Source: Gaeumannomyces sp. JS-464 (taxonomy: Eukaryota; Ascomycota; Sordariomycetes; Magnaporthales; Magnaporthaceae). Taken from it: DNA of 64,000 nt. The first letter of the stretch is position 1. The number at the start of each line of letters is the position of its first letter. The notes beneath the pieces were generated by a model. That model was not told the origin of the DNA. It made no database searches and was given only the letters and a program-made list of their open reading frames with translations. The DNA lies in assembly GCA_002197995.1 (NCBI GenBank), contig NGZR01000001.1, forward strand, positions 11,799,501 to 11,863,500. The letters run 5' to 3'. Positions 25,657 through 62,406 of the stretch are shown piece by piece. The translations under genes and the position numbers were made by a program.

Positions 25657-26366
25657 GGTGTCCCTCATCAGGTCGGAACGCGCATTGATACAAGGGCATA
25701 CTTGGGCACGGACTGGTCGGATCGAAAAAGCGAGAGGCGGTGGCACAGAGGCTCATGGGAGGTCGGCTGTGATGATTTTCCTTCCTTCATTTTGGGTCAT
25801 TTATTCCCTTTGTATAAGTTCGGTTTGCACATACCCCCTTTATCTTTCCTCTACATTCTCTTCCGCTGAATGGCTGGCGGTCGATCAAGCCCCATCCTCG
25901 GCGGAGGCGCTTTTTCGCAACAGCTTTCGCGGAGGCGCTTTTTTATTTTAGGAGCACCCGGGGTTGTAAGAGATTCAGGCACCACTCACGTACTTGATAT
26001 AATACTGTTGAACTTTTACTCTCGCCCCTGGGTGGATTCACACGCGTTCGGCCGAGAGTTGGGATCCAGTCAGGTGATGTCTAGCCGCTAAGACGGCCCA
26101 GCGGAGGAGCTAGGACGCACCCCGACGTCTGGGGCGCGGCAAGGACCGGCTCAACGCCCACCTACACGCTTCCCCGCATTCCACTCGACCCCGGCCTGAA
26201 CACTTGGTGGGACGCATGGTTTCTAGGGATACGCAGGCACATAAAGCTGATTGGGGACATGTGTGTCGATAAACCCCTTCGACCCAAGGGCCATTGATCC
26301 ATGTACTTGTTTCTGTTTATCCTCTCGTTGGATTGCAACATACATTCTAGCCTGACCGGTTGCAAT
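25657..26366. other. intergenic, no gene seen
   Basis: This holds the 3' flank of the Bqt4-like gene and the promoter of the dehydrogenase gene. No supported frame was found. Confidence 0.5.
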
Positions 26367-27550
26367 ATGAGATCGACGCTTTCGCCGCGGGCGCTCCGCC
26401 ATGTCAGGGCACCGTCAGCAAGGGCCTTCTCCTCGACGGCACGCCGACTCGACACGTACGGGTTCATCGGACTCGGCCAGATGGGCTATCAGATGGCCAA
26501 GAACCTGCAGTCCAAGCTTCCGCCGTCAGACACGATCCAGCTTTTCGACATCAACCGCGACGCCATGCGAAAGCTGGCCGCCGAGATGAAGACGCCGTCG
26601 TCGCCGTCCCAGGGCGGGGGCGCCGCGGTAGAGCTGGCCGAAAGCGCAGATGCGGCCTCGGCAGAAGCGGTAAGTACTGCTTACCTCGGCAGTTGAGCCC
26701 TCGCCATTCAAGTGTCTCCCTGGTCAGGATAAAAGGGAAAAGAGGGGCAAACGGGCTAACTGGATGGGCGGCGGGCAATTACATGATGCAGGACACCGTC
26801 ATTACTGTACTCCCCGAGCCGAGCCATGTCAAGTCCGTCTACGCATCCATAATCTCACACCTACAATCGTTGCCGACGACCAGCCCAACCGGCACCGGGG
26901 ACCAGCCGCACCGCCTCTTCATCGACTGCTCAACCATCGACCCGGCCTCGTCGAGGGAAGTGGCGGCGCTGGTGGCAGAGGGCACGGGCGGGGCGGCGGC
27001 GTTTGTGGACGCGCCCATGTCGGGCGGGGTGGTGGGCGCGGCGGCAGGCACGCTGACCTTCATGCTTGGGGCGCCGAGCGGGCTGGTCGGGCGGGCGGAG
27101 CCGGCGCTGCTGCGGATGGGGCGACGGGTGCTGCACTGCGGCGCGCAGGGCACGGGGCTGGCGGCCAAGCTGGCCAACAACTACATCCTGGCCGTGGCCA
27201 ACGTGGCGACGGCCGAGGCCATGAACATGGGGGTGCGCGCCGGGCTCGACCCGGCCGTGCTGGCCGGCGTGCTCAACGCCTCGACGGGCAGGTGCTGGCC
27301 CAGCGAGGTCAACAACCCCGTCCCCGGCGTGTGCCCCGCCAGCCCCGCGGCGAGGGACTACGTGGGCGGGTTCGGGATCGCGCTGATGCGCAAGGACCTC
27401 GGGCTCGCTATATCGGCGGCCCAGGAGACTGGCGCCAGGCTGGAGCTGGCGGCCAAGACCAAGGAGGTCTACGACGCGGCGGATACGAGGGAGGACTGCC
27501 GGGGGAGGGACTTTAGTGTCGTGTATCGATATCTGGGAGGCAAGGAGTGA
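26367..27550 (+). CDS. 3-hydroxyisobutyrate dehydrogenase, probably mitochondrial
   Basis: The spliced product is 353 residues with one phase-0 intron (26670-26791). It belongs to the beta-hydroxyacid dehydrogenase family that oxidises 3-hydroxyisobutyrate to methylmalonate semialdehyde in valine breakdown. The N-terminus is Arg/Ser/Ala-rich without acids (MRSTLSPRALRHVRAPSARA), like a mitochondrial presequence. The Rossmann motif is GFIGLGQMGYQMA. The substrate-binding motif is FVDAPMSGGVVGAAAGTL, and the catalytic Lys lies in GTGLAAKLANN. The C-terminal helical domain contains GFGIALMRKDLGLA. The frame is intact. Confidence 0.92.
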
Positions 27551-35738: not shown

Positions 35739-36886
35739 ATGAAGGGTCTATTCGCGCTCCTGCTCATCCCCCTGGCCCTCGCGGCGCCGACCCCCGAGGC
35801 AGGCGAGCTCGTGGAGCGCCAGGCGGCCCAGAGCATCGATGCTCTCATCAAGGCCAAGGGGAAGCTGTACTATGGCACAGCCACCGACCAGGGCCGCCTT
35901 GGTCAGGGAAAGAACGCTGCCATTATCCAGGCCAACTTCGGCCAGGTCACACCCGAGAATTCCATGAAGTGGGAATCGCTTGCGCGCAACAAGGGACAGT
36001 ACAACTGGGGACAGGCCGACTACCTGGTGGACGTACGTGAGCCTGGGGAATTAGAAACAAGAGCAAGGAAGGGGCGTCTTCAGCTGACCCGGAGAACGAT
36101 AAACAGTGGGCCGTCAAGAACGGCAAATCGATCCGTGGCCACACCCTCGTCTGGCACTCGCAGCTCCCCGGCTGGGTCAACAACATCAACAACCGGGCCG
36201 AGCTCACCAAGGTGATCCAGGACCACATCGCGACCGTTGTCGGCCGCTGGAAGGGCAAGATCCGAGCCTGGGTAAGCTACCAGCCGCTCACGGCATCGCG
36301 TTGCAAGTACTGGACGAACTGACCCTGTTTTTTTTTTTTTTCCGTTATCCAGGACGTCCTCAATGAGATCTTCAACGAGGACGGCTCGCTCCGGCAGTCC
36401 GTCTTCTCGCGCGTCCTGGGCGAGGACTTTGTGCGCATCGCCTTCGAGGCGGCCCGCAAGGCCGACCCGAACGCGGTGCTGTACATCAACGACTACAACC
36501 TCGACAGCCCCAACGCGGCCAAGCTGACGCGCGGCATGGTGGCCAACGTCAAGAAGTGGATCTCGCAGGGCATCCCCATCGACGGCATCGGCACGCAGGG
36601 CCACCTGCAGTCCGGCCAGGGCAACGCCCTCGCCCAGGCCATCAAGGCCCTGGCCGACACGGGCGTCAAGGAGGTCGCCGTCACGGAGCTCGACATCCAG
36701 AACAACAACGCCAACGATTACGCCGCCGTTACTAGAGGCTGCCTTGCCGTCAAATCTTGTGTCGGAATTACCGTTTGGGGCGTCCGTGACCAGGATTCGT
36801 GGCGGCCCCAGGGCAACCCGCTCCTGTTCGACAGCAACTTCAACCCCAAGGCCAACTACAACGCTATCGTCCAGGCTCTGAATTGA
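35739..36886 (+). CDS. secreted endo-1,4-beta-xylanase, GH10
   Basis: The spliced product is 330 residues with introns 36033-36106 and 36272-36352; all exon lengths are in frame. The signal peptide is [15 protein letters not shown], followed by a short propeptide. GH10 hallmarks are [28 protein letters not shown] and [11 protein letters not shown] (acid/base Glu about residue 158). VTELDIQ carries the nucleophile Glu, about residue 265, and the family-typical [13 protein letters not shown] closes the barrel. The enzyme cleaves the beta-1,4-xylan backbone outside the cell. There is no carbohydrate-binding module, so it is a single-domain enzyme. A T-run precedes the second acceptor. Confidence 0.96.
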
Positions 36887-37181: not shown

Positions 37182-40105
37182 CTATCTGAAGAACGGCACA
37201 ATGTCGCAATCCTCGGAGCGATCAAACCTCTCGTACCGCGCCTCCAGCTGGCCGCCCTTCCACTTCTCAGCGAACTCCGTCCCTTTCTCGACCAAGTCGT
37301 CCTCGCGGAGTCGCCTCCACCGCCCGAACTCGCCGGCCGTCACGCATACGACCTGTGGCGGGCCAACGTAGGGTTGAGCCGCGTCGGTGAGGCTGTCTTC
37401 TGGCGAGATGATCACCACAGCCACGACCTTTTTGTCGTCCCCTTTCTCTTTTGTCTTTGGCGGTGAGGCTTTGCCTTGGCCTTGGATTTCTTACTCTTGG
37501 CTTGTCCTCGACGGCCTCCTCGTCGGGACAGGGGAAAAACTGAACAGAACGTCGGTCGGCCGATTGCGGGAGGAAGATCTTGGCGTCGCTGATGAAGGCC
37601 ACTGGTTTGGAGTCTTCGGCGTCGTGCTCGGAGTCGGATGGATCCTCCTTGCTGGTCTCGGCAGGGCCCTGCGGTGCGTCTTCAGCCCGCTCGCGCTCCT
37701 CGACTTTGCGGAAAAGCGGAACTCGGAACACGCGGAGCACTCTGTAGCTCTCGGTGGCGTAGACATGGTCGGCAGTCCAGGTGAGAGTATAAGGCAGCGG
37801 CGAGGCGGGAAGCCGGTCGTCCCCCTCCCGGAGTAAGTGGCAGTCGAGCGGGGTGCTGGCCTTGTACACCAGCCTGGGCGGACTCCTCGCCGGCTTCCTC
37901 TGCGACAGTCGGTAGGTGGAGACTCGCAGGTACAGCCCACGCAGGGCCGCTGTCGCCGACGCTGTCGTCTCCGTCTGACCTTGGCTCGTGTGTCGGCGTC
38001 CGTCGAGGCAGGCCAGGTGTAGGAACCGACCGCAGGCGGAGAATCTTGGCTGCACCGAGATGTGGCACAGGTCTCGGCCTCCGCAGCCGAGCAGCCGGGT
38101 GAAGTATGTCTTCCTGGCCAAGTCGGCAAAGAGGACCTCGTTTTTCCCGAGCGGCCAGACGGCCATTTCGTGAGCTGGATGGATGACAGGCGGCGAGTTG
38201 AACAGCTTGCCCTTCCATTGGTGTGCGAACCGAAATCGACGCTGGACCTGGATTGTAGGCCAGTCAAGGGAGAAGATCACGAGCTCGCGCTTGCCGGATG
38301 CACGGCCGTTCAGGTGCGTCTCCTCCCCGTCCATTCTGAATCCAGCTTCGCTCCCTAAGACGTCTGAGGCCCCGTCTGAGGCCCCGTCCGAGGGGCCATC
38401 GCTGTCGCCCCAAAAGTCCGGATGAACGGTACTCTTGAGGGAGAGATCCGATCCCTCGCCCTCGGCATCAATCTCGCGGATTTCCATGGCCATGGAACTA
38501 ACCTCTCCTTCCTCATCGTCATCGTCCTCCTCCCCCTTCCCCTGCTCCTCCTCGGATGACACCATCGATGCTATGGAAGGAGACTCGTCAGATGCTTCGT
38601 CCACCTCTCCCAAGGCCATGCCATCCTCCGCAGAAACCCAATCGTTGAAAAACTCCTCGTCGTGGATCTCATCCGAGATGTCCGTGGTCGAGCCCTCGCT
38701 GTAGGATTCTATCGCAGAATTCGACGACTCGAGAGAGTGTCCAAGTCATCTTCTGCCTGCATTCCGCCGGAGCTTTCGCTACCGCTCTGCTAATCAGATG
38801 CCTCGCCGTCGTCACCATCGTCGTTATCGCCGCCGTTGTCGTCTTCATCCCCGCTACTGGGGTCACTTGTGCTAGAAAACTCAGATGAAGACGTGGAGTC
38901 ATCTTCGTCCCCATCATTATCGGCATCAGGAACCCCCCCGGAGGCCGCTCCTAGCCCCTGCCGCGTCTTCACCACTCTCCACTGGCTCGGCAACTTTGAA
39001 CCCTCTGCGGTGGACAATGGCGGTAAATTGGCCGCGGCGGTGCATCTCTTCAATGTACTCGATACGGTGGTCTCCCAAGTCAATCAACTTGAGAAGCCCT
39101 TCCTCGTCTTCAGCGTATATCTCGGATCCAATCCGGAGGAGGCCGCCGCATTCTGTGATAGCGGCTCGCGCAGCCCGGCCTAATTCGTGGTCCTGAAGCG
39201 GCTGGGTGTATAGGCGCAGCCGCTCCTCGTCGACATCGAGAAGCCGGCTCCCTCCTCGTTGCTTGTGCCGATGACCTGGCGTCTTCATCGTCCACCACTG
39301 AAGCTGCATCTCCACACTGGTGTTTTTCTCATGGCCAAACCTCCGAGTACTAGATGAGTTGTCAGTTGTGGCCAACAAGTTCGTTTTTTTTTTTTTTTTT
39401 CTTTGGGGAGATCAGACTTACGGCTCTGGCAGCAACACGACACGGACGTCCTTACCATAGGGCCCGCAGCTGCTAAAGTATGACACCCTGCTTGACCCCG
39501 AGGAGGTGTAGTCTTTTTTCCCCTCCTCCTCCAAACGATAGCTCTTGAGCCGACTCTTGATCCCACGCAGAAAGTTGGATTCTTCGAGGCTCTTCCATTG
39601 GCACCGATCAATCTCGCCCCGGAAGCTGCCTGGGACGACCGGAGAGGATCCGAGGAAGTACCCCCTCCGCAATAGCTTCCAGGTACTGGTTGTGCAAGGC
39701 CTCTCCGCCGCGGCACTGGGTGTAATACGACGGCAGGGCCCTAGTGAAGTTCTTTTTCTTGAGCCTCTTCTCGACAATGCTCTGGTAAAACTGCATTTTT
39801 TCCTCGTCAAGGTACCAAATTGCGAATTTGGCTACAAATCGGTCAATAGGTGGTCAGTAAAAGAAGAGGATAAAACTCGCATTGATATTCCGTTTCAAGG
39901 AGTCTGGCTTCTCACCCTCGACGAAGATGCTCTGGACCTGGAGACACGTTCCAAAGTTGCCGGAATGAAGGAACTCATCCAGCTCATTGCGAAATTCCTC
40001 GCGAGTCTCTTCCGAACCATGAACCAGACACTCCAGCTGTTTGCAGGCCGCCTTTGAGCCGGGCATCATGATGTCTGCATGCTTCGCCCAGTTCTTCGCA
40101 CAGTA
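37182..40105 (-). pseudogene. NLR-type gene, C-terminal part downstream of the transposon
   Basis: This is the continuation of the SesA-NACHT gene after the inserted element. It begins YCAKNWAKHADIMMPGSK, in frame with the upstream half once the element is removed. A supported intron joins SIFVE to KFAIWYLDEEKMQFYQS near 39918-39835. Next come EEGLLKLIDLGDHRIEYIEE and an acidic low-complexity region. A beta-rich C-terminal domain (VIFSLDWPTIQVQRRFRFAH, FSACGRFLHLACLDGRR, YTLTWTADHVY) may be WD40-like. The terminal PEDSLTDAAQPYVGP and DIVPFFR close the gene. The frame is broken by a TAG near 38782 and several indels, for example near 38730, 39650 and 37480. Some may be assembly errors, but the TAG and the insertion are not of that type. 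Confidence 0.7.
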
Positions 40106-40146
40106 AGTCAGTGCACCCCCTGTCGGGCACCCCCCTGTCGGGCACC
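40106..40146. repeat. left terminal inverted repeat
   Basis: 41 bp beginning AGTCAGTGCACCCCCTGTCG; exact reverse complement of 41943-41983. Confidence 0.95.
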
Positions 40147-40206
40147 TCCACCAGCATCGGATCAACACCAAACCTGGTACATTTAACAGCAAATTTTTAC
40201 CCCAAT

Positions 40207-41839
40207 TCAACCGACCTCGATGCAACTATATATAGATTCCTGATCAGAATTTGACGCTCTTTCAGACGCTGTATCATTTGCCTCCTCAACTTGCCCCCTT
40301 GCCTTTGCAATCCGCCGGATATTTACGAAGGTCTCGTTGGGATCCGGTGCCACCCGCCTTTTTTTGCGAGGCCGTTGCGCCTCCAATTCGGCCTCTAATT
40401 GCCTAATCTTTTGCTTAGCGGCAGCCAGATCGTATTTGTGCATTCCGTAGGCTTTTTGGACCTTCCGGAAAAATAATCGGGCCGTAGGGCTTGCCGGAAT
40501 CCGGGCCTTAAAGGTGCTAATTTGGGAGGCCAACTCACAACTTTGTTTGGGAGTTTCCCAAGGCACCTGGGACATCTGGAAAAGGACGTTTAAGCGCTGT
40601 TTAGCCCTATTGTCCTCTGAAAATTGCTGAACTTGGGATCGTCGGCCGTCTTGTTGCGAGTTTTCCAATAAAAGCCGGTGCCTAAGGGGCTTGTTGATAT
40701 TCCGCGGCCAAAGGCCCGATGCCCGCCACCCCGATTTAATTATATAAGGGGTAAAGGCTTGTGATCTTGCAAAGGCATAGCCTTGCAAAAATAGGCGTTT
40801 TCCTACCACAGTTAAGCAGGTAAACAAAGCCTGGGAGCCGGTTATTTTGCGGTAGGCCTGCTTAAGAGGGCTGAAGACGGATAGATCCAAAGGCTGCAAA
40901 ACGTGCGTAGTATGGGGGGGGGGGGGGGGGGGGGGGGTATAAATAAAGGAGATAAACGCTGTTTTGCAGGCAAAAAACATAAATTCCTTTGTTATATGGG
41001 ATCCGTGGCCATCTAGGACCAAAAGCCGTGGTTTAGGGGTAGGGGGTTTAGTGCGAGCGAGAAAAACCTTTTGCAGCCATTCTACGGCCGTGCGATCCGT
41101 AGTCCAGCCGCTATCCGTTGCAGTAAATTCCCACCCCGGGAAATGGCCTAGGCCCTCCGGAAACCACTGCTCTTGCACGTATTTTCCTTTGAAAATAATA
41201 AGGGGAGAAAGCATAACCCCAGTGGCCGAAATGCACTCGAGAAAGCTCGTCCAAGTGCGAGATCCGGGCTCTTTTTTTTTTTTGCAAAATCCGGGCCTCC
41301 GCAAGGCCTAAAACGAGCCCGTTGCCCGTCTTGCCTTCTTGTAGGCCGCCCTCGTCCATATTGTACGTATTTTCCGGCTTAATCCCGGCCACCTCCGGGA
41401 CCTCGAGGCGTTGCTACCAGGCCTTTATTATATCCGTAGTAGCCCCTTTGATACGGGCAGATTCTATCCGCCGGCCTCGCCCGCTACGGATCTCTGGATA
41501 TCGGCCCAAAAAGCCACGGATCCAATGCTTCCCAAGGGGCCTGGAGGTGCCTCCTTGGCGGAGGATCTCTTGGGCAAAAAACCGGACCTCGGCGTGCGTT
41601 GGCGGGAGCCCTAAAGAGGCCTGCACAAGGACCCAATCCGCTAGGGCTTTTTCCTGCTCCGGGCGCAGGCGTTGATAGGGCTCTTGGGACTGCCGGATGG
41701 GTAGGGCGCCCTTTAAACGGCGTTGTAGGGTAGACCTCCGTATCCCCCAAAGTCGGGCAGCCTTCGCGATTGGGACCTTTGCCGCGACGGCGGTGACGGC
41801 CTGTTCGACTTCTTCTTCTGTATACTGTTTCTCCGACAT
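40207..41839 (-). pseudogene. pogo-type transposase, frame interrupted
   Basis: The ATG at 41839-41837 opens with a psq-type helix-turn-helix (EEEVEQAVTAVAAK, ARLWGIRRSTLQRRLKG). A CENP-B/Tc5-type DNA-binding domain follows (KALADWVLVQASLGLPPTHA). The DDE domain has its three catalytic Asp in TYNMDEGG, LLVLDGHGSH and HVLQPLDLSVF. A coiled-coil C-terminus (KQKIRQLEAELEAQ) ends at 40207. Two defects are seen: an in-frame TAG at 41416-41414, where a Trp codon is plausible, and a one-base frameshift at a 12-A run (41272-41283). A 24-G run (40914-40937) encodes a poly-Pro stretch just before the third Asp. As written this copy cannot make a full transposase. Confidence 0.9.
40914..40937. repeat. 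poly-G tract (24 G) inside the transposase gene
   Basis: On the coding strand it is poly-C and gives about eight Pro codons between IYT and HTTHVLQPLD. Confidence 0.9.
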
Positions 41840-41942
41840 CTCAGCAATCGATTGCAGCAAAAAGGAAGGAAATCGGGCCAGAATTGATGGAATGCCGTAG
41901 AATTGAAGTACGCACGACGATCTGAGGCTGTGGGGTTAACAG

Positions 41943-41983
41943 GGTGCCCGACAGGGGGGTGCCCGACAGGGGGTGCACTGACT
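41943..41983. repeat. right terminal inverted repeat
   Basis: 41 bp, exact reverse complement of 40106-40146, followed by the TA duplication. Confidence 0.95.
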
Positions 41984-44296
41984 TAGCTAAGGAGATGGTG
42001 ATGAATGATGTCCGAGTCGCAGCTCGTCAGGAATCTAGCCGAGTCACCTGTCCCTGCCGAGCGTAGAAGCTTTTGATACCGCGGCTGCCGAAGATATCGC
42101 AATGCAGCATACGCAAGGGCGCGAGGGGAGATCAAGAGATTCTTGGTGTCCTCGCTTTGGTGCTCTGAGTGGAGAATGTCCGGGTTGCGTGCGAGGAACA
42201 GGCGGACAGACATGTGGTAGACACTGCAGACGGGCTTCGTTGCAGCCCCTTGCTTGCTCGGCCCCGCATCCACACGAACGAATGGCGCACGCTGATCTTT
42301 GATATTGTCGAGGTATATCTCCTCGCCCAGGCCCAGGTTCTTCCTCGTGAATGGGTGGAGTTTAGACGCCCTGATGGCTTCACAGAGCTCATCGCATGAG
42401 AGAGGGCGTTTTGCATATACGAGACATGATAGGACTTGGCTGCAGAAAGTGACCGTCAGCGATCCGAGACGCCTTATATCGTTACCTCGCCTTCGAAGGC
42501 GAGGCAAAAGCGCCACGTGATCATACCACAAAATATGGGTACGCACCTGAAGGTTTCATGGTTTCTGGGCTTGATGCTCTTGACTTTCCTTCTCAGGTAC
42601 TCTTCGAAGCTCTGCGGCGGGTCTCTGAGTAGCGCATCGAGCTGCCAGCTTTTTGCTTCTCTCTTGATCGATTCCATAACCAGTTTTGCCCAAAGGATGT
42701 TGCCCCTGATTGTCGTTGCTAGTTCGAGCAAGCTCTCCTCCTTCTTCGAGTCGTAACCACTCCCAGAACCCGATTTGCCGCGTCGCTGAGGAGAGCCCAA
42801 CATCGTCCTTGTTCTCCTTCTCAGTGAGGCGCAGGCGGAAGCAGGTCGGAACTTTCTCCAGGGCGTAACGAATGTCGCACCGCTCTTGCGAGCTGCACCA
42901 CACGTTGACATCGACGTCATCTCTTTTGGTCAGGGAAAGACAGAAGTCCAAGGCTTGGAGAACGTTGTTCCCGCCGCCGTTGTTGTCTGGGACCTCGTCT
43001 AAGCCGTCCAGAAAGATGTAAGCTTCCTTGAGCTCCACGATGATGGCCGTGATGAACTCCTTGAGCGAATTTTCTGTCACTTGACTCCCCGTAAGCTTGA
43101 AGATTCTATCTGGGACTTCATCTCCGATGGCGTATTTCTGGCGGAACAGGCTGTCGGCCAGATTGCGGTACACTGTCGCCGGGGCTCTGGCTCGTCGCTG
43201 TCGTCGTAGAAGTGGAACGCAGCCTGGGCTGAGCGACAGGTCTGTTCCTTGAAGTGCGCCTCAAAGAGACCAATCGCGTGGACGCAAGAGGACAGACTTC
43301 CCGTATCCGGCCTCGCCGTAAAGCCAAAAGACTTTTGTCGCGGAGCCGGGTTTGAACCATTCCTGGAACGAAGGGCTCTCCAACAGCCACTTCCCAGTCC
43401 CCTCAAGAATTGCTCGCTCGTGATTGGATCTTGCGGAAGCACTGACTGTAGAGTGCAGCCATTCGATTATTGCTTTCCGTGAAGCCCCTAAGTGACAAGA
43501 AACTTTTAGAACAGGAGAGCTTTCCGGTTGCTCGCAACCCTACTATATCAAACTGGGGCTAGCACGAACCTGATCTTGAACGACAGTTGTTGATTCGCTC
43601 CTCCTGTCATACAGCGTCAGTTTACCACCAGCTAACTACCATTGACCCTGAGGTTTCGATGGGCCGGCTTCATACCACTGGTTGTTCAAGTAGATGGTCT
43701 GATTCATGTTGTCCCCTTTGTTGAGAAAACCGCCATTTGTCACACAAAGAAGACCCCCACCACCCTGGACCAGGTTCTGGACGTTGTGGTCGCCGTCAAT
43801 ACGGGGGGCTTGATGTCTACACATCGCCTCCATCTCGCTCTCCTCAAGTGATGGAGACACCTCGTCTAAGCGGTTGATTGACTTTTGCAGTTTGTCGACC
43901 TGATCGGCAATCTGGAACACCTGGTGCTCCGAGAGCTTCTGAATGGTCGACACGATTTCCTTCATCAGATCCTCAACTCGGCCACGCTTGCCGATTGTGA
44001 GCACGACCCGCTTGTACGTGCTCTTGACTGAGCTGCCCTGGGCCTCCTTGAGAGCCCCGAAGATGCTGCTAAGCTCTTTGGCGTTGTTCTCGCAGCGTTT
44101 CAGCATGTCTTTGATGGAGGCTTTTGTCGTGTCGTCAGGCTCGGATTCTGACACCCTCGCCTTGACGCGCTCCAGAATCGCTGAATGCTTTGGGGAGCCC
44201 CTGGAGTGTTTTGATGGCGTCATATGACGTCTTGATCACCTTGATGATCTCGATGGAGCTGCTGATAAGCGCGATGACCTCAAGCCCGCTGGCCAT
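41984..44296 (-). pseudogene. SesA-NACHT NLR-type protein, N-terminal part
   Basis: Fungal NLRs act in non-self recognition and regulated cell death. The ATG at 44296-44294 begins MASGLEVIALISSSIEIIKV, followed by a SesA-type N-terminal domain (YKRVVLTIGKRGRVEDLMKE, then GDHNVQN and GGFLNKGDNMNQ). The NACHT domain has Walker A LYGEAGYGKS (near 43325-43294) and Walker B YIFLDGLDEVP (near 43020-42990). A region typical of these proteins follows (RPLSCDELCEAIR, VYHMSVRLFL). The reading frame ends HHHLLS and then TAA, a stop created by the duplicated TA plus the first base of the transposon. A short deletion in the SesA domain near 44190 and indels near 43300, 42780 and 42540 are also seen. Confidence 0.85.
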
Positions 44297-45383: not shown

Positions 45384-47854
45384 TGTCTGCAAGTGCCGAG
45401 GCGGCGCCGCCATTGGCAAGCATCTCAAAGAGCGGGGATGGGGCCCTCTAGCACAAAAGAGAATAGTTCGAGTGGATCAGATCTATAGCAGGTTGGTTGT
45501 GTTCTTCCCCTCCTTTCGTCACTGTGTGTGTATCCAGGTACGCTAACATTAAACCCACATTTCTAGGAAAGATCGCCAGACTCATCTCTTCAAAACGAAC
45601 AAGGTGCCCCGCAATAGGCTGAGGGGAAGTCTCCCGAGACACATTCTTGTAATCCGAAGAATCATCGACGCCAGAGGCTTGCCCCAGGATGTCGAGATTG
45701 ACGTCAAGTCCCCGGGGCTGTCAGCGGCTCTGAAAGATATTCCGAGACGCAGACAAGTATATGATTGCCGAGTCTGACAAGTCGCCAGTGGTGAGTAAAA
45801 AGACCAATTTTAGGACATCCGCTGGCGTCCAGACCGAGTTTCGTCACAGTTGCTTAGCATCTATACTTCCATGCAGATTTCGCCACAGAGCTTGTTCCTG
45901 GCCTGGGATGCATTGGAGGAGCGCCAAGCTCAAGAGAGTTCCCGAGAGCCACAAGATGTCCAACTTCTCCAGGACATATCCACCGCCCTGACCTACCTGC
46001 ATGATGACTTCGGCTCGAAGCGGACCGAGCTGAAAGGGCTCATCCAGGATGGCCTGATAACGTACGGCCTATTGGGGAGCATGTTCACGCCGAACACTGC
46101 GCTTTACACTGACAGGAACGGTCTGAAAGAGGGCCAGGTGATGATGTTCAAGTCGGGGTCTTACCAGAAAACCGAAAGGGTGGCGGAGCTTTACGTTGTG
46201 GAAGCCACTCTGATCTCGCATGATGGAGAGGACTTTGGTTGGGGGAACACCCGCATCGAACTGCCTATTTTCGAAGGCAAGGTGAAGATCACCGACCTCG
46301 AGGTGTACCCCCTCGCCCACCATGCTGAAGAGCGAGCAATTCGGCAAAATCTAGCCAACCGCGGGCGCGACTTCGTTGCTCTGTTCCAAAAGCCGACATG
46401 CAAGTGGTACGGCGCGACGGCAGTGTATTCGAAACGACAAGGGACGGAATGGGAAGAGCTTCAGTTCCCAGCTTGTCGGCGTGTCATGATTGACCCGTCA
46501 GCTTGGATGGCACACAACAGCAGCTTTGACAAATTGCGTCGCCCATATGTCCTCAAGAAGAACAAGCTGCGTCCAGAGCTGTTGAGGGACGGACCTGATG
46601 TTCTGCAACCATCGAGTTCTCGGCTTCGACTTTGAGGAGAAGCGGTGGGGCGCGTTTGCCGTCTCGAAGCTCAAAGATCCGAACTGGAACTCGAAGGCGT
46701 TCGACAAGGTCATCCTGCCAAGCAATCAGCTCAGGCTGATCAGGGATCTGGTGTTATTCCACCGCACCCGCCAGGAAGCCGGCGGCAAAAACAACAACAA
46801 CGACAGCGGCTTCGACGACATAATCACAGGCAAAGGGAAGGGCCTCGTCGGGCTGCTGAGCGGGGCCCAGGGGTCGGGAAGACGCTCACGGCCGAGGCGG
46901 TGGCCGAGGTGTCGCACCGGCCCCTCTACCCCATCTCGGCCGGGGAGCTGGGCACCTCGGTCAGCAGCGTGGACAGGCAGCTCAGCGTCGTCCTCGACAT
47001 CACGCGCCGCTGGAGCTGCGTGTTGCTGATCGACGAGGCGGACGTTTTCCTCCACAAGCGCGATGAAGATGTTAGCCTGGAGCGGAATGCGGTCGTGAGC
47101 GTGTTTTTGCGCCGCCTAGAGTCTGTTCATGCCCCCCTCCGAGTTTGGGGAATTGGACCCGTGGTGCGGGCGGGTGCAATAAGATTTCAGCTGACACTCG
47201 GGCTTCACAGGTACTTCCAGGGAGTCGCGATTTTGACAACGAATAGGAAGATCGACATAGATATGGCATTTGTGAGTGAGTGCCTGCCTTCAAATACAAT
47301 TTAACCATATGAACTTGTCTAGCGCGTCTTGCTAACCGACAGTGTAGGCCGCATCCACTACCAGTTCCATTACGGAGACCTTGACGCCGAAGCGCGGCTG
47401 AAGATTTGGAGGAATTTTGTGGGAGCGGAGGACCCCAGTCCTGAGGGGGGCATCGACGAGAATGGCCTCAGGAAGCTGGCTGAAGAGTACCGCTGAGTGG
47501 GCGTGAGGTGAGTGTACCTGTTGTCCAGACGGGTGGTTTCGAAACTTCATGTTGGGCATTTTCTAATACTTCTGGTACCCGACGCAGATCAAGAACGCTG
47601 CATTCTGCGCTCGGTCGATTAGCCAGGCCCGGAACGAAGCCCCGTCCTTCAAGCTCATCACCGACTGTATCGAAAATCTCAGCTTCGAGTCGTTTTCCAG
47701 CGAGAAGGAACAGTTGACGAAAGGGAGGCTACTGCCATCACTAATGGGTGGTCCTGAGAGGGCAGCTGTTGGGAAGGAGAGGGGCATGCTAAGAACAATC
47801 GCGAATACAAGGGTGGATTTATTCGGGGATGAAGGCATTCGATTCCGTCGGTAG
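45384..47854 (+). CDS. AAA+ ATPase of the fungal DUF7025-AAA type, frame interrupted
   Basis: The N-terminal region before the ATPase resembles the DUF7025-type module common in fungal AAA proteins (LISHDGEDFGWGNTRIELPI, VKITDLEVYPLAHHA, WYGATAVYSKRQG). The ATPase core has Walker A GAQGVGKTLTAE, which needs one G restored at 46870-46873. Walker B is CVLLIDEADVFLH and sensor 1 is AILTTNR. Introns 47121-47210 and one from 47273 are supported, though the exact acceptor of the second is unclear. After LAEEYR a missing C near 47494 restores the C-terminus (EIKNAAFCARSISQARNEAP), which ends at TAG 47854. The start at ATG 45384 is tentative, and the region 45470-45640 is not fully resolved. Cellular role is unknown; AAA proteins remodel other proteins using ATP. 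Confidence 0.8.
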
Positions 47855-60193: not shown

Positions 60194-61329
60194 ATGTCGT
60201 CCAGGCCACCGATGAGGGACGACATCTTCCAGCGCCTGCCTCGGGCAACGGCGCTTCTCATCCTTTCGGCGCTCCTGGAATCCGCTCAAGCTTCGGCACT
60301 TCCCAGGGCGACGGCAACTCTTCCCTATATGGTCCTTGACGTTGTCGCATGGCCGCCGCTTCCTACCGCCCCCGCCCTAACGCCTAACGAGTTCCACGAG
60401 CTGCTTCGCCGTCAGGATACCAACACAGTTTGCGGCTACATCGGCGGCGATCGCAATCTGCCCGCAACCTGCTCACCCGGTTCCCACTGCGTTCTTGATA
60501 GGCAACACAACGCCGTCGGTTGTTGTCCCAATGGCCAGCCGACCTGCTCCACCGGCGTTTTCACCGGCTGTGTCGACCACAACAGCGGCCCTCAGACCAT
60601 CGTCAACCCCTACGTCTACACCTGCCAGGGAAATGACGTTTGCTACAAGAATGTCTTTGGCGGCGGTCAGTCCCAATATGGATGTGGCACCGCTAGCGCC
60701 CTCGGCACCACGGTGGAGGCGTCCGCGTCGGGCCTGACCGACACCCTCTCCCTGACCAGCATCCAGGTCAGCTTCACCGAGTCACTCAGCACGCTGTCCA
60801 CGCCGACGACTATCAATCCGAGCACCGGGACATTCACGCCATCAACCAGGAGTAGCAGCACGACTAGCTCTAAATCATCTTCGTCGAGCAGTTCGAAAAC
60901 CACGAGCAGGTCGTCATCGAGCACTACGTCGTCTTCTACTTCGTCCTCGACCTCTCAGACGACGACCTCCACCACGGGCACCACAAGCTCTCCCGCCGAA
61001 ACCACCAGCGCCGGCGCGGCGTCTGTGAATGGCCCAGGCGGCAATGGAAGCTCGAGAGTCGACAAGACTGGGGCCATTGTGGGCGGTACTATCAGCGGCG
61101 TTGCTGTCCTAATTGCCCTCATGGCTGTTGCCATATTCTTCTGGCGACGGAGGGCGGCCTCCAATGTGCGCAAGGGACCAGGCGTGAACGGCAACACGCA
61201 GTACATCAGCCCGATGACCGGAGCCCAGGGCTTCCAGCGCCTGCACGACAGCAATGCCGCCTATGAGACGGGTATGCCTCCTGGTGCTGTCTCGGCGCTC
61301 CCGCCGGCAGCCGCCATGTACCAGCAGCC

Positions 61330-61363
<34 letters not shown>

Positions 61364-62406
61364 GGATGGCAACAGGAAATGGCGCAACAGCAAGCGCAGA
61401 GGGAGTTGCAGGGACAACAGTGGCAGCAATGGGAGCAGCAGCAGGCGCAGAAATGGGGCATGGATGCAAACGCGCAAGTCGGCTATAATGAAAACTCGGG
61501 CACAGTGCGATACGTCGAGGGTGACCCGACCGCCGCGCAGGCCGGCCACGGTAACGTTGCATACGTCGAGAGCGCGCCCGACGGCGGCAATAATAGTGGC
61601 TACCCACACAGCGCAGCGGCCGCTGCGACTCCGGCCGGTAGCAACCCGGCCGCCGGTGGCTTTGGGAACGCCACCGAGATCACCAGCCCCGCGCGTCCTG
61701 TGTCGGTTGCTCAGGCGCCGCCCACTCATGGCTACCACTACCCGGGTCAGTACCCAGCCGCCTACGCTGGCGCGCCCGTAGCCGCGGCCGCGGTGGCGGG
61801 CGGTGCTGCCGCCGCCACGGGTCTGAACCGGGGCGTTAGCCACGGCGCGACCAGCTCCAGCGGCGGCGCGAGCAGCTATTATAGCAACAGCCACATGCCT
61901 CCTCCGCCCACGTCACCCCCCTCAGGGCCAGTGCCGCCCCCGCCCAGCAGCGCTTACGGCGACAGCTCAGGATCGTCGGTCAGCCGGGGCATGAGCATCA
62001 GAGGCGGGGCGGCGGCAGCATAAGGAGCCACCCCACGCCCATCGCCAGCCAGTTCACCTCGGGAGCCTGGGCGGTGCAGATGCGCGGGTCCCTGCGCGAG
62101 TCAACCGACGATTACGCGAGAGGGTATCCCGATGGACTGGAGCGCATCGGCGAGGACGAGCCCCTGGCCACCAGCATGCAGGACAACCCCGTCGGCAACA
62201 ACAGAAGCAAGGACAACAGCAACGGCAGCTACGCTGACAGCGGCACCACGGGCTTCGACTCGTCAAACCAGCCCGAGGGCGGGGGCCTGGCTCCCAAGGA
62301 TTCCCTCATGTCCCGCGCTAGCGGCAGCAGCAACGCGTCCAGCAACGGTGGCAGGCCGCTCTGGCACCAGAACCGGCCGCACGGTCGCAACCAGATGTGG
62401 ATGTGA
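60194..62406 (+). CDS. Mid2-like single-pass cell-wall sensor protein
   Basis: A hydrophobic leader (TALLILSALLESAQASA) precedes a Cys-rich ectodomain (VCGYIGGDRNLPATC, HCVLDRQHNAVGCCPNG, TGCVD). A Ser/Thr-rich stalk likely to be O-glycosylated follows. One membrane segment (GGTISGVAVLIALMAVAIFF) ends in a WRRR stop-transfer signal. The long cytosolic tail has a Gln-rich run and Pro/Ala-rich parts. This layout matches fungal Mid2/Mtl1/Wsc-type sensors of the wall-integrity pathway. The frame reaches a TAA at 62021-62023, but adding one G in the run at 62006-62009 continues it (SQFTSGAWAVQMRGSLREST) to TGA 62406. The total is then an exact 737 codons plus stop. The start could also be the ATG at 60212. 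Confidence 0.8.
61316..61364. repeat. CAG/CAA repeat coding a Gln run
   Basis: Mixed CAG and CAA codons give about 12 consecutive Gln residues in the cytosolic tail of the wall-sensor protein. Confidence 0.85.

What the first reader, a model, noticed from the sequence alone, without database searches (positions are those of the whole stretch)
37182..44296. Fot1/pogo-like element splits an NLR gene, and the empty site reads through in frame
The 1878-bp element lies between TA duplications. Deleting it and one TA joins HHHLLS to YCAKNWAKH without changing frame, so the target was a coding exon. On insertion the duplicated TA plus the first element base creates an immediate TAA stop. NLRs in fungi control non-self recognition and cell death and are known for presence/absence variation, so this may be a null allele at a polymorphic locus.
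Basis: partly seen in the sequence, partly recalled or inferred. Interest (0 to 1): 0.75.

Follow-up and report, generated by a model that had tools for sequence, protein, structure and literature searches.

The report
Jumping gene splits fungal immune receptor
In a relative of the rice-blast fungus a small jumping gene has landed inside a protein-coding part of an immune-receptor-like gene and cut it in two, probably knocking it out; this is a clear but ordinary example of something already described in another fungus.

Summary
A 1878-bp element (40106-41983) with perfect 41-bp terminal inverted repeats lies between two TA copies. It is a Fot/Pot2-type pogo transposon: DDE_1, Tc5-type and Psq HTH domains, 50% identity to a Pyricularia grisea transposase. 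Three of four aligned homologous fungal proteins read through the junction. So the target was a coding exon of a single-copy SesA-NACHT NLR, and the insertion makes an immediate TAA. The C-terminal half, probably a beta-propeller sensor, is cut off.

The gene has about nine further frame changes, but the assembly also has them in HSP70 and CCT-type genes, and no stop was found in the frames used outside the element; assembly errors are likelier than decay, though the changes are about five times denser here. Polymorphism cannot be tested with one genome. A transposon-inactivated NLR that differs among isolates is already published (nwd2, Podospora anserina; PMC3321046, passages). Verdict: real, well explained, ordinary.

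The parts
37182..44296 (-). SesA-NACHT NLR gene interrupted by the element (ATG at 44296, stop at 37182); about 1561 codons in 14 open pieces, with introns and about nine frame changes
   Evidence: three-frame reading, homologue alignments, pieces and coordinates
43645..44296 (-). N-terminal SesA domain and linker
   Evidence: Pfam PF17107, E 6.7e-23, on letters read over one frame change; 84 profile positions matched in one frame in the own-genome search
42889..43401 (-). NACHT-type NTPase domain (PF24883 NPHP3_N), spread over more than one reading frame
   Evidence: E 1.4e-14 for the first piece; C1:11842389-11842901
41986..42438 (-). exon part directly upstream of the insertion, ending ...HHHLLS
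   Evidence: aligned with P0001, P0002, P0004
41984..41985 (.). TA target-site copy on the upstream side of the gene; with the first element base it forms TAA on the minus strand
40106..41983 (-). Fot/Pot2-like pogo transposon, 1878 bp, transposase on the minus strand
41943..41983 (.). 41-bp terminal inverted repeat, one side
   Evidence: 41 of 41 identical to the other repeat
40106..40146 (.). 41-bp terminal inverted repeat, other side
41414..41860 (-). N-terminal part of the transposase (HTH_psq, HTH_Tnp_Tc5), ended by a stop
40207..41304 (-). C-terminal part of the transposase (DDE_1), with frame changes relative to a relative
40914..40937 (+). run of 24 G inside the transposase, where the apparent spacing of the last two catalytic Asp is 41 instead of 35
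40104..40105 (.). TA target-site copy on the downstream side; first two bases of the Tyr codon of the empty site
37182..40105 (-). C-terminal half of the NLR cut off by the insertion; probable beta-propeller sensor region ending in the conserved DCDIVPFFR
   Evidence: model of homologue P0003 and fold search

Best explanation
A Fot/Pot2-like pogo transposon inserted at a TA inside a tyrosine codon of a single-copy SesA-NACHT NLR gene and duplicated the TA (shown). On the gene's strand this gives an immediate TAA about halfway through (shown), so the message, if made, would encode only SesA-NACHT without the C-terminal, probably beta-propeller, sensing half (inferred). The most likely consequence is loss of the receptor's function, a null allele (inferred, about 75%). 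The gene was probably whole and under coding constraint until recently; most of the other frame changes in it are probably assembly errors (inferred).
For: Perfect 41-bp TIRs and TA duplication. Same family elsewhere in the genome, 23 of 36 copies examined with TA on both sides, the window's included. DDE_1, HTH_Tnp_Tc5 and HTH_psq domains; 73% identity to a Gaeumannomyces hyphopodioides protein and 50% to the P. grisea transposase Q01165. Homologues read through the junction in one protein (P0001, P0002, P0004 of the four aligned; the alignable part of P0003 starts after it). Only one locus with the C-terminal half in this genome. No stop in the 1561 codons of the open pieces; the four stops inside single-frame matches of the gene lie in stretches after a frame change or at an intron edge. 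If the frames are right, neutral change since loss of constraint is below about 1.6-2.0% per site. Frame changes also occur in HSP70 and CCT/Cpn60-family genes (10 in 25,497 nt of hits) and in a window gene 78% identical to a Gaeumannomyces protein (near 62008). Two element copies that are 99.1% identical (L055, L056) have 2 and 8 frame changes, both without stops, as sequencing-type indels would give. The C-terminal half of homologue P0003 is modelled strand-rich and its weak PDB matches are mostly beta-propellers (which entries are propellers is recalled).
Against: Frame changes are about five times denser in the NLR (9 in about 4.6 kb) than in HSP70/CCT-family hits (10 in 25.5 kb; binomial p 0.001), so the gene may already have been decaying. 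The 'no stops' count is partly by construction, because open frames were chosen; the homologue-guided alignment gave one stop call, at an intron edge. The N-terminal truncated product could still act. No transcript or second isolate was available.
Confidence: 0.85

Rival explanations
1. The NLR was already a decaying pseudogene when the element landed, so the insertion had no effect of its own.
For: Nine frame changes in about 4.6 kb, about five times the HSP70/CCT-family rate. Broken NLRs may be common here: 16 of 104 NACHT-type matches contain stops, though some can come from frame changes, as in the window's own match.
Against: No stop in the open pieces, 1561 codons, whereas of 13 other element copies aligned, six carry stops, five of them several (L045 3, L047 3, L050 2, L053 5, L054 5, L063 1) along with frame changes; of the seven without stops five have 2-3 frame changes, one has 8 and one has none (14 of 36 copies were aligned). 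The assembly has frame changes in housekeeping genes and in the control gene near 62008.
Confidence: 0.2
2. The insertion does not abolish but changes the protein: a SesA-NACHT protein without sensor remains active or acts as a decoy, or the C-terminal half is expressed separately.
For: The cut falls between the NACHT part and the C-terminal domain; the F. duplospermum homologue P0003 (896 aa, no Pfam match at E 0.01) corresponds to the C-terminal half alone.
Against: P0003 may be an incomplete gene model. No expression data. The usual result of a mid-gene stop is loss of function (general knowledge).
Confidence: 0.08
3. The junction is an assembly artefact.
For: The assembly has small indel errors.
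Against: Small indels do not create a 1878-bp element with perfect TIRs, a TA duplication and an in-frame empty site. Of 24 other full-length copies aligned the nearest is only 85% identical, so a mis-join through a repeat is unlikely.
Confidence: 0.02

Closest known systems
nwd2 of Podospora anserina inactivated by the REPA transposon in het-s isolates (PMC3321046, passages read)
   Same: An NLR-type (STAND) gene knocked out by a transposon; the passages say that nwd2 is inactivated in all wild het-s isolates analysed so far and functional only in het-S strains, that is, a polymorphic null allele.
   Different: Different element (REPA) and different receptor type; polymorphism is documented there and untested here.
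Pot2 / Fot family of the pogo superfamily (P0148, record Q01165_PYRGI named 'Transposase'; that this record is Pot2 is recalled)
   Same: DDE_1 + Tc5-type HTH + Psq domains, 535-aa transposase; 50% identity over 99%. TIR of about 40 bp and TA duplication for Pot2 are recalled, not from a call.
   Different: A distinct subfamily, closest to a Gaeumannomyces hyphopodioides protein (73%); this copy has a stop and frame changes.
AvrPib alleles of Magnaporthe oryzae broken by transposon insertion (PMC5387869, passages read)
   Same: Transposon insertion as the commonest cause of loss-of-function alleles in a relative of this fungus (81.7% of virulent isolates).
   Different: An effector gene, not an NLR; the passages name Pot3, and Pot2 in an assay and a legend.
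SesA-NACHT protein of Fusarium decemcellulare (P0001, NM208_g7374)
   Same: 39% identity over the full query; same domain order; continuous across the insertion site.
   Different: Uninterrupted.

Membership tests
Fot/Fot-like family of pogo transposons (features from PMC7386202, passages read) | pogo-type DDE transposase (DDE_1) with HTH DNA-binding domains | tested here: met
   PF03184 E 1.8e-31; PF03221 E 5.2e-11; PF05225 E 1.7e-6
Fot/Fot-like family of pogo transposons (features from PMC7386202, passages read) | DD35D catalytic spacing | tested here: inconclusive
   Apparent 41 in the window copy, at the 24-G run and frame changes; 35 in the 10 of 35 other copies in which the motif could be read in one frame, not readable in the other 25
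Fot/Fot-like family of pogo transposons (features from PMC7386202, passages read) | TIR of 40-60 bp (most Fot and Fot-like) | tested here: met
   41 bp, perfect
Fot/Fot-like family of pogo transposons (features from PMC7386202, passages read) | target duplication TAA in most Fot; TA in part of Fot (clades FotC, FotD) and of Fot-like | tested here: met
   TA, not TAA, in the window; TA on both sides in 22 of 35 other copies, with L050 a clear exception; the clade was not determined
fungal SesA-NACHT NLR | N-terminal SesA domain | tested here: met
   PF17107 E 6.7e-23 on letters read over one frame change; 84 of 122 profile positions in one frame
fungal SesA-NACHT NLR | NACHT/NPHP3_N NTPase domain with P-loop | tested here: met
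   PF24883 E 1.4e-14 for the first piece (read over a frame change) and 0.0012, below cut-off, for the second; 66.5 bits, over the cut-off,
fungal SesA-NACHT NLR | C-terminal repeat/propeller sensor domain | tested here: inconclusive
   No Pfam domain in the pieces given nor in P0003; homologue model mean pLDDT 59, Foldseek matches with low TM-scores
polymorphic null allele of an NLR locus | other isolates carry the empty site | not testable with these tools
   one genome only; no relatives held for it (banner)

The most novel reading that the evidence does not exclude
Pot2-like elements in this lineage land preferentially in or near NLR genes and drive their birth and death. Four of 39 element loci lie within 4 kb of a NACHT-type domain against 0.59 expected by random placement within contigs (p 0.0015 in 2000 placements; five distances tried, 2 to 20 kb, p 0.0465 to 0.0015). 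The window's own copy is one of the four and was given, and shared compartments could explain it; only the window copy is shown to interrupt an NLR frame.
Probability: 0.1. Interest if true: 0.5.

Novelty: new member of a known kind. Interest (0 to 1): 0.22.

Why it matters
It is a clean case of a transposon splitting an NLR in a fungal lineage for which one search listed no homologue of the gene, so it could serve as a marker for NLR turnover and for vegetative-compatibility typing. It does not change any general picture, since a transposon-inactivated NLR that differs among isolates is known from Podospora. The practical lesson is that frame changes in this assembly must not be read as pseudogenes without the reads.

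Tried and rejected
Rejected: mis-join (perfect ends, TA duplication, nearest of 24 other full-length copies aligned only 85% identical). Rejected: RIP as the cause of the element's or the gene's breakage (GC of the element 0.54, window 0.58; RIP indices of the window copy computed are like those of most other copies and unlike the AT-rich copy L072; no stops in the gene's open pieces, GC at third positions 0.70; RIP indices of the gene itself were not computed). Considered and left open: decay before insertion. Led nowhere: a paralogue or empty site in the same genome (besides the gene itself only SesA-region and NACHT-region matches); a clear second NLR interrupted by the element (four regions fetched; L080-L082 looked at, L083 not looked at; in L081 and L082 the element lies outside the NLR frames seen, L080 is undecided because its right end was not found). 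Literature searches for the same combination showed in their listings no report of a Pot2-type element inside an NLR; I read passages of nine papers only, and the library lacks most subscription journals. Rows dropped: 11 of 36 copies outside 1790-1900 bp or with unplaced ends, 22 of 36 copies were not aligned, match rows were condensed by hand (54 to 39, 104 to 88).
Full report
OBSERVATION. The element is window 40106-41983, 1878 bp, with 41-bp perfect terminal inverted repeats and TA on both sides. On the minus strand the frame ...HHHLLS runs into TAA formed by the TA copy and the first element base. Leaving out the element and one TA gives one open frame of 273 codons over the join; the next longest over the same join is 42.

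THE ELEMENT. Its two transposase frames match DDE_1, HTH_Tnp_Tc5 and HTH_psq. Of 278 protein hits (120 listed), the nearest is a Gaeumannomyces hyphopodioides protein (73% over the whole query); a Pyricularia grisea transposase, Q01165 (Pot2 by recall), is at 50% over 99%. The genome holds a family of copies: 54 match rows, with only 40 of 109 candidates scored, so a lower bound. I condensed them by hand to 39 loci for and fetched 35 besides the window's. Of 36 copies, 23 have ends with TA on both sides; of the other 13 most are truncated or an end could not be placed, but L050 has good ends without TA. The window copy has no close sibling: its nearest of 24 other full-length copies is 85% identical, while other subfamilies contain copies 97-99% alike (11 of 36 copies left out). 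Against the G. hyphopodioides protein it shows three frame changes and one stop. A run of 24 G lies at 40914-40937; there the apparent spacing of the last two catalytic residues is 41, against 35 in the 10 other copies that could be read (25 of 36 could not). By a published description of the pogo superfamily (PMC7386202, passages) DD35D and TIRs of 40-60 bp are typical of Fot/Fot-like elements, and TA rather than TAA duplications occur in FotC, FotD and part of Fot-like.

THE GENE. Read piecewise, the gene encodes an N-terminal SesA domain and a NACHT-type domain, then a long C-terminal half without Pfam match in the pieces given. A search with the X-joined protein gave 21 hits among 7988 scored candidates: Fusarium decemcellulare (39% over 100%), F. 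avenaceum (41% over 82%), F. duplospermum (46% over 50%), then more distant fungi such as Mollisia, Botrytis, Neocucurbitaria and Mycena. None is labelled Magnaporthales (P0017 has no name). Yet a neighbour gene places the genome there: 78% to Gaeumannomyces tritici and Magnaporthiopsis poae over 98-99%, 60% to Pyricularia oryzae over 58% (211 hits, 120 listed). The gene's distribution thus looks patchy; a missed, shortened or mis-annotated homologue cannot be excluded. Of the four homologues aligned with the window, three (P0001, P0002, P0004) run through the insertion point in one protein; the alignable part of the fourth starts after it. In this genome the gene is single: the junction piece finds only its own two halves, and the F. 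decemcellulare protein finds the C-terminal half nowhere else (19 matches from 30 candidates).

WHAT IS LOST. The stop falls about halfway. The C-terminal half was modelled through the homologue P0003 with an alignment of 17 proteins: mean pLDDT 59, strand-rich. Its best PDB matches (18 at E up to 0.001) are mostly proteins that I know as beta-propellers (SF3B, Arp2/3 subunit, WDR61), with TM-scores of 0.08-0.16 by the query. So a propeller sensor is likely, not shown.

OTHER LESIONS. Frame changes against homologues lie near 44164, 43287, 43190, 42797, 42760, 39664, 38950, 38740 and 37490; eight are seen with at least two of three references, the first with P0001 only, the sole one covering that end. 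Further calls by the aligner with P0001 only (43710, 37980, 37798), with P0003 only (42705, 37453), and at the intron edge 42434 (P0001 and P0002) were set aside as likely artefacts. The assembly itself has such changes in conserved genes: 2 in 12,051 nt of HSP70 hits and 8 in 13,446 nt of CCT/Cpn60-family hits, at one and five loci, and one near 62008 in a window gene against both references used. By eye the AAA gene next door (DUF7025 and AAA) has two, while the GH10-like gene at 35739-36886 and the dehydrogenase-like gene at 26360-27550 show none (by eye, names by eye). CCT subunits are essential (general knowledge), so these are best taken as assembly errors. The NLR's density is about five times that of the HSP70/CCT hits (binomial p 0.001), a result against the simple view. 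For it speaks that no stop occurs in the 1561 codons of the open pieces (frames were chosen open). The stops inside single-frame matches lie at 43263, 37493, 39420 and 39414, after a frame change or at an intron edge, and one search gave one stop call, the same intron edge. By contrast six of 13 other element copies aligned carry stops, five of them 2-5 each; the other seven carry none. If the frames are right, less than about 1.6-2.0% neutral change per site has accrued since constraint was lost.

MECHANISM AND CONTEXT. Shown: an insertion of cut-and-paste type at TA in a coding exon, and creation of TAA. Inferred: truncated SesA-NACHT without sensor, or no product; null allele. Other NLRs look broken too: 104 matches to the NACHT-type family, 16 with stops inside, the window's own, which is due to a frame change, among the 16. 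Four of 39 element loci lie within 4 kb of such a domain against 0.59 expected (p 0.0015), the window copy included; this may reflect shared compartments.

PRECEDENT. In Podospora anserina the gene nwd2 is inactivated by the REPA transposon in all wild het-s isolates analysed and functional in het-S strains (PMC3321046, passages). Other NWD pseudogenes there were inactivated by RIP or an inversion (PMC1805685, passages); nwdp-1 appears functional in some strains (PMC12222747, passages); at het-v a region of five genes is replaced by transposons in strain Y (PMC9262711, passages). In M. oryzae transposon insertion is the main loss-of-function route for AvrPib (PMC5387869, passages). The finding is thus a new member of a known kind.

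Noticed in passing
G000 C23:4056984-4058018, C23:7045780-7046778, C23:1547021-1548216, C32:399696-400030, C12:4147931-4148589, C1:7197157-7198879: Frame changes inside CCT/Cpn60-family and HSP70 genes: the assembly has indel errors, so gene models from it need care.
   Followed up: yes
window 40914-40937: Run of 24 G inside the transposase; the longest C/G run in each of the 35 other copies is 5-21.
   Followed up: partly
window 45850-47304: Gene with DUF7025 and AAA domains beside the NLR, with two frame changes in the three-frame reading.
   Followed up: partly
L080 about 4077; L081; L082: Pot2-like copies within 4 kb of other NACHT-type genes; in L080 the element starts about 0.2 kb after the NLR reading frame ends, so it may be a second interrupted NLR.
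   Followed up: partly
L050: Element copy with both inverted-repeat ends in place but no TA on either side.
   Followed up: no
G000 whole genome: Large NLR repertoire: 104 matches to PF24883 (condensed by hand to 88 loci) and 9 matches to SesA.
   Followed up: partly
P0003 (Fusarium duplospermum): An 896-aa protein corresponding to the C-terminal half of the NLR alone, its alignable part starting shortly after the insertion point; separate gene or incomplete model.
   Followed up: no
window 60194-62403: Gene named Mid2 domain-containing in relatives, 78% identical to Gaeumannomyces tritici and Magnaporthiopsis poae, with a frame change near 62008; suggests that the genome is of Magnaporthaceae (family name recalled).
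   Followed up: yes
window 43645-43780: Gly/Asn-rich linker between SesA and NACHT, in a position where other fungal NLRs can carry amyloid signalling motifs (recalled); not tested.
   Followed up: no
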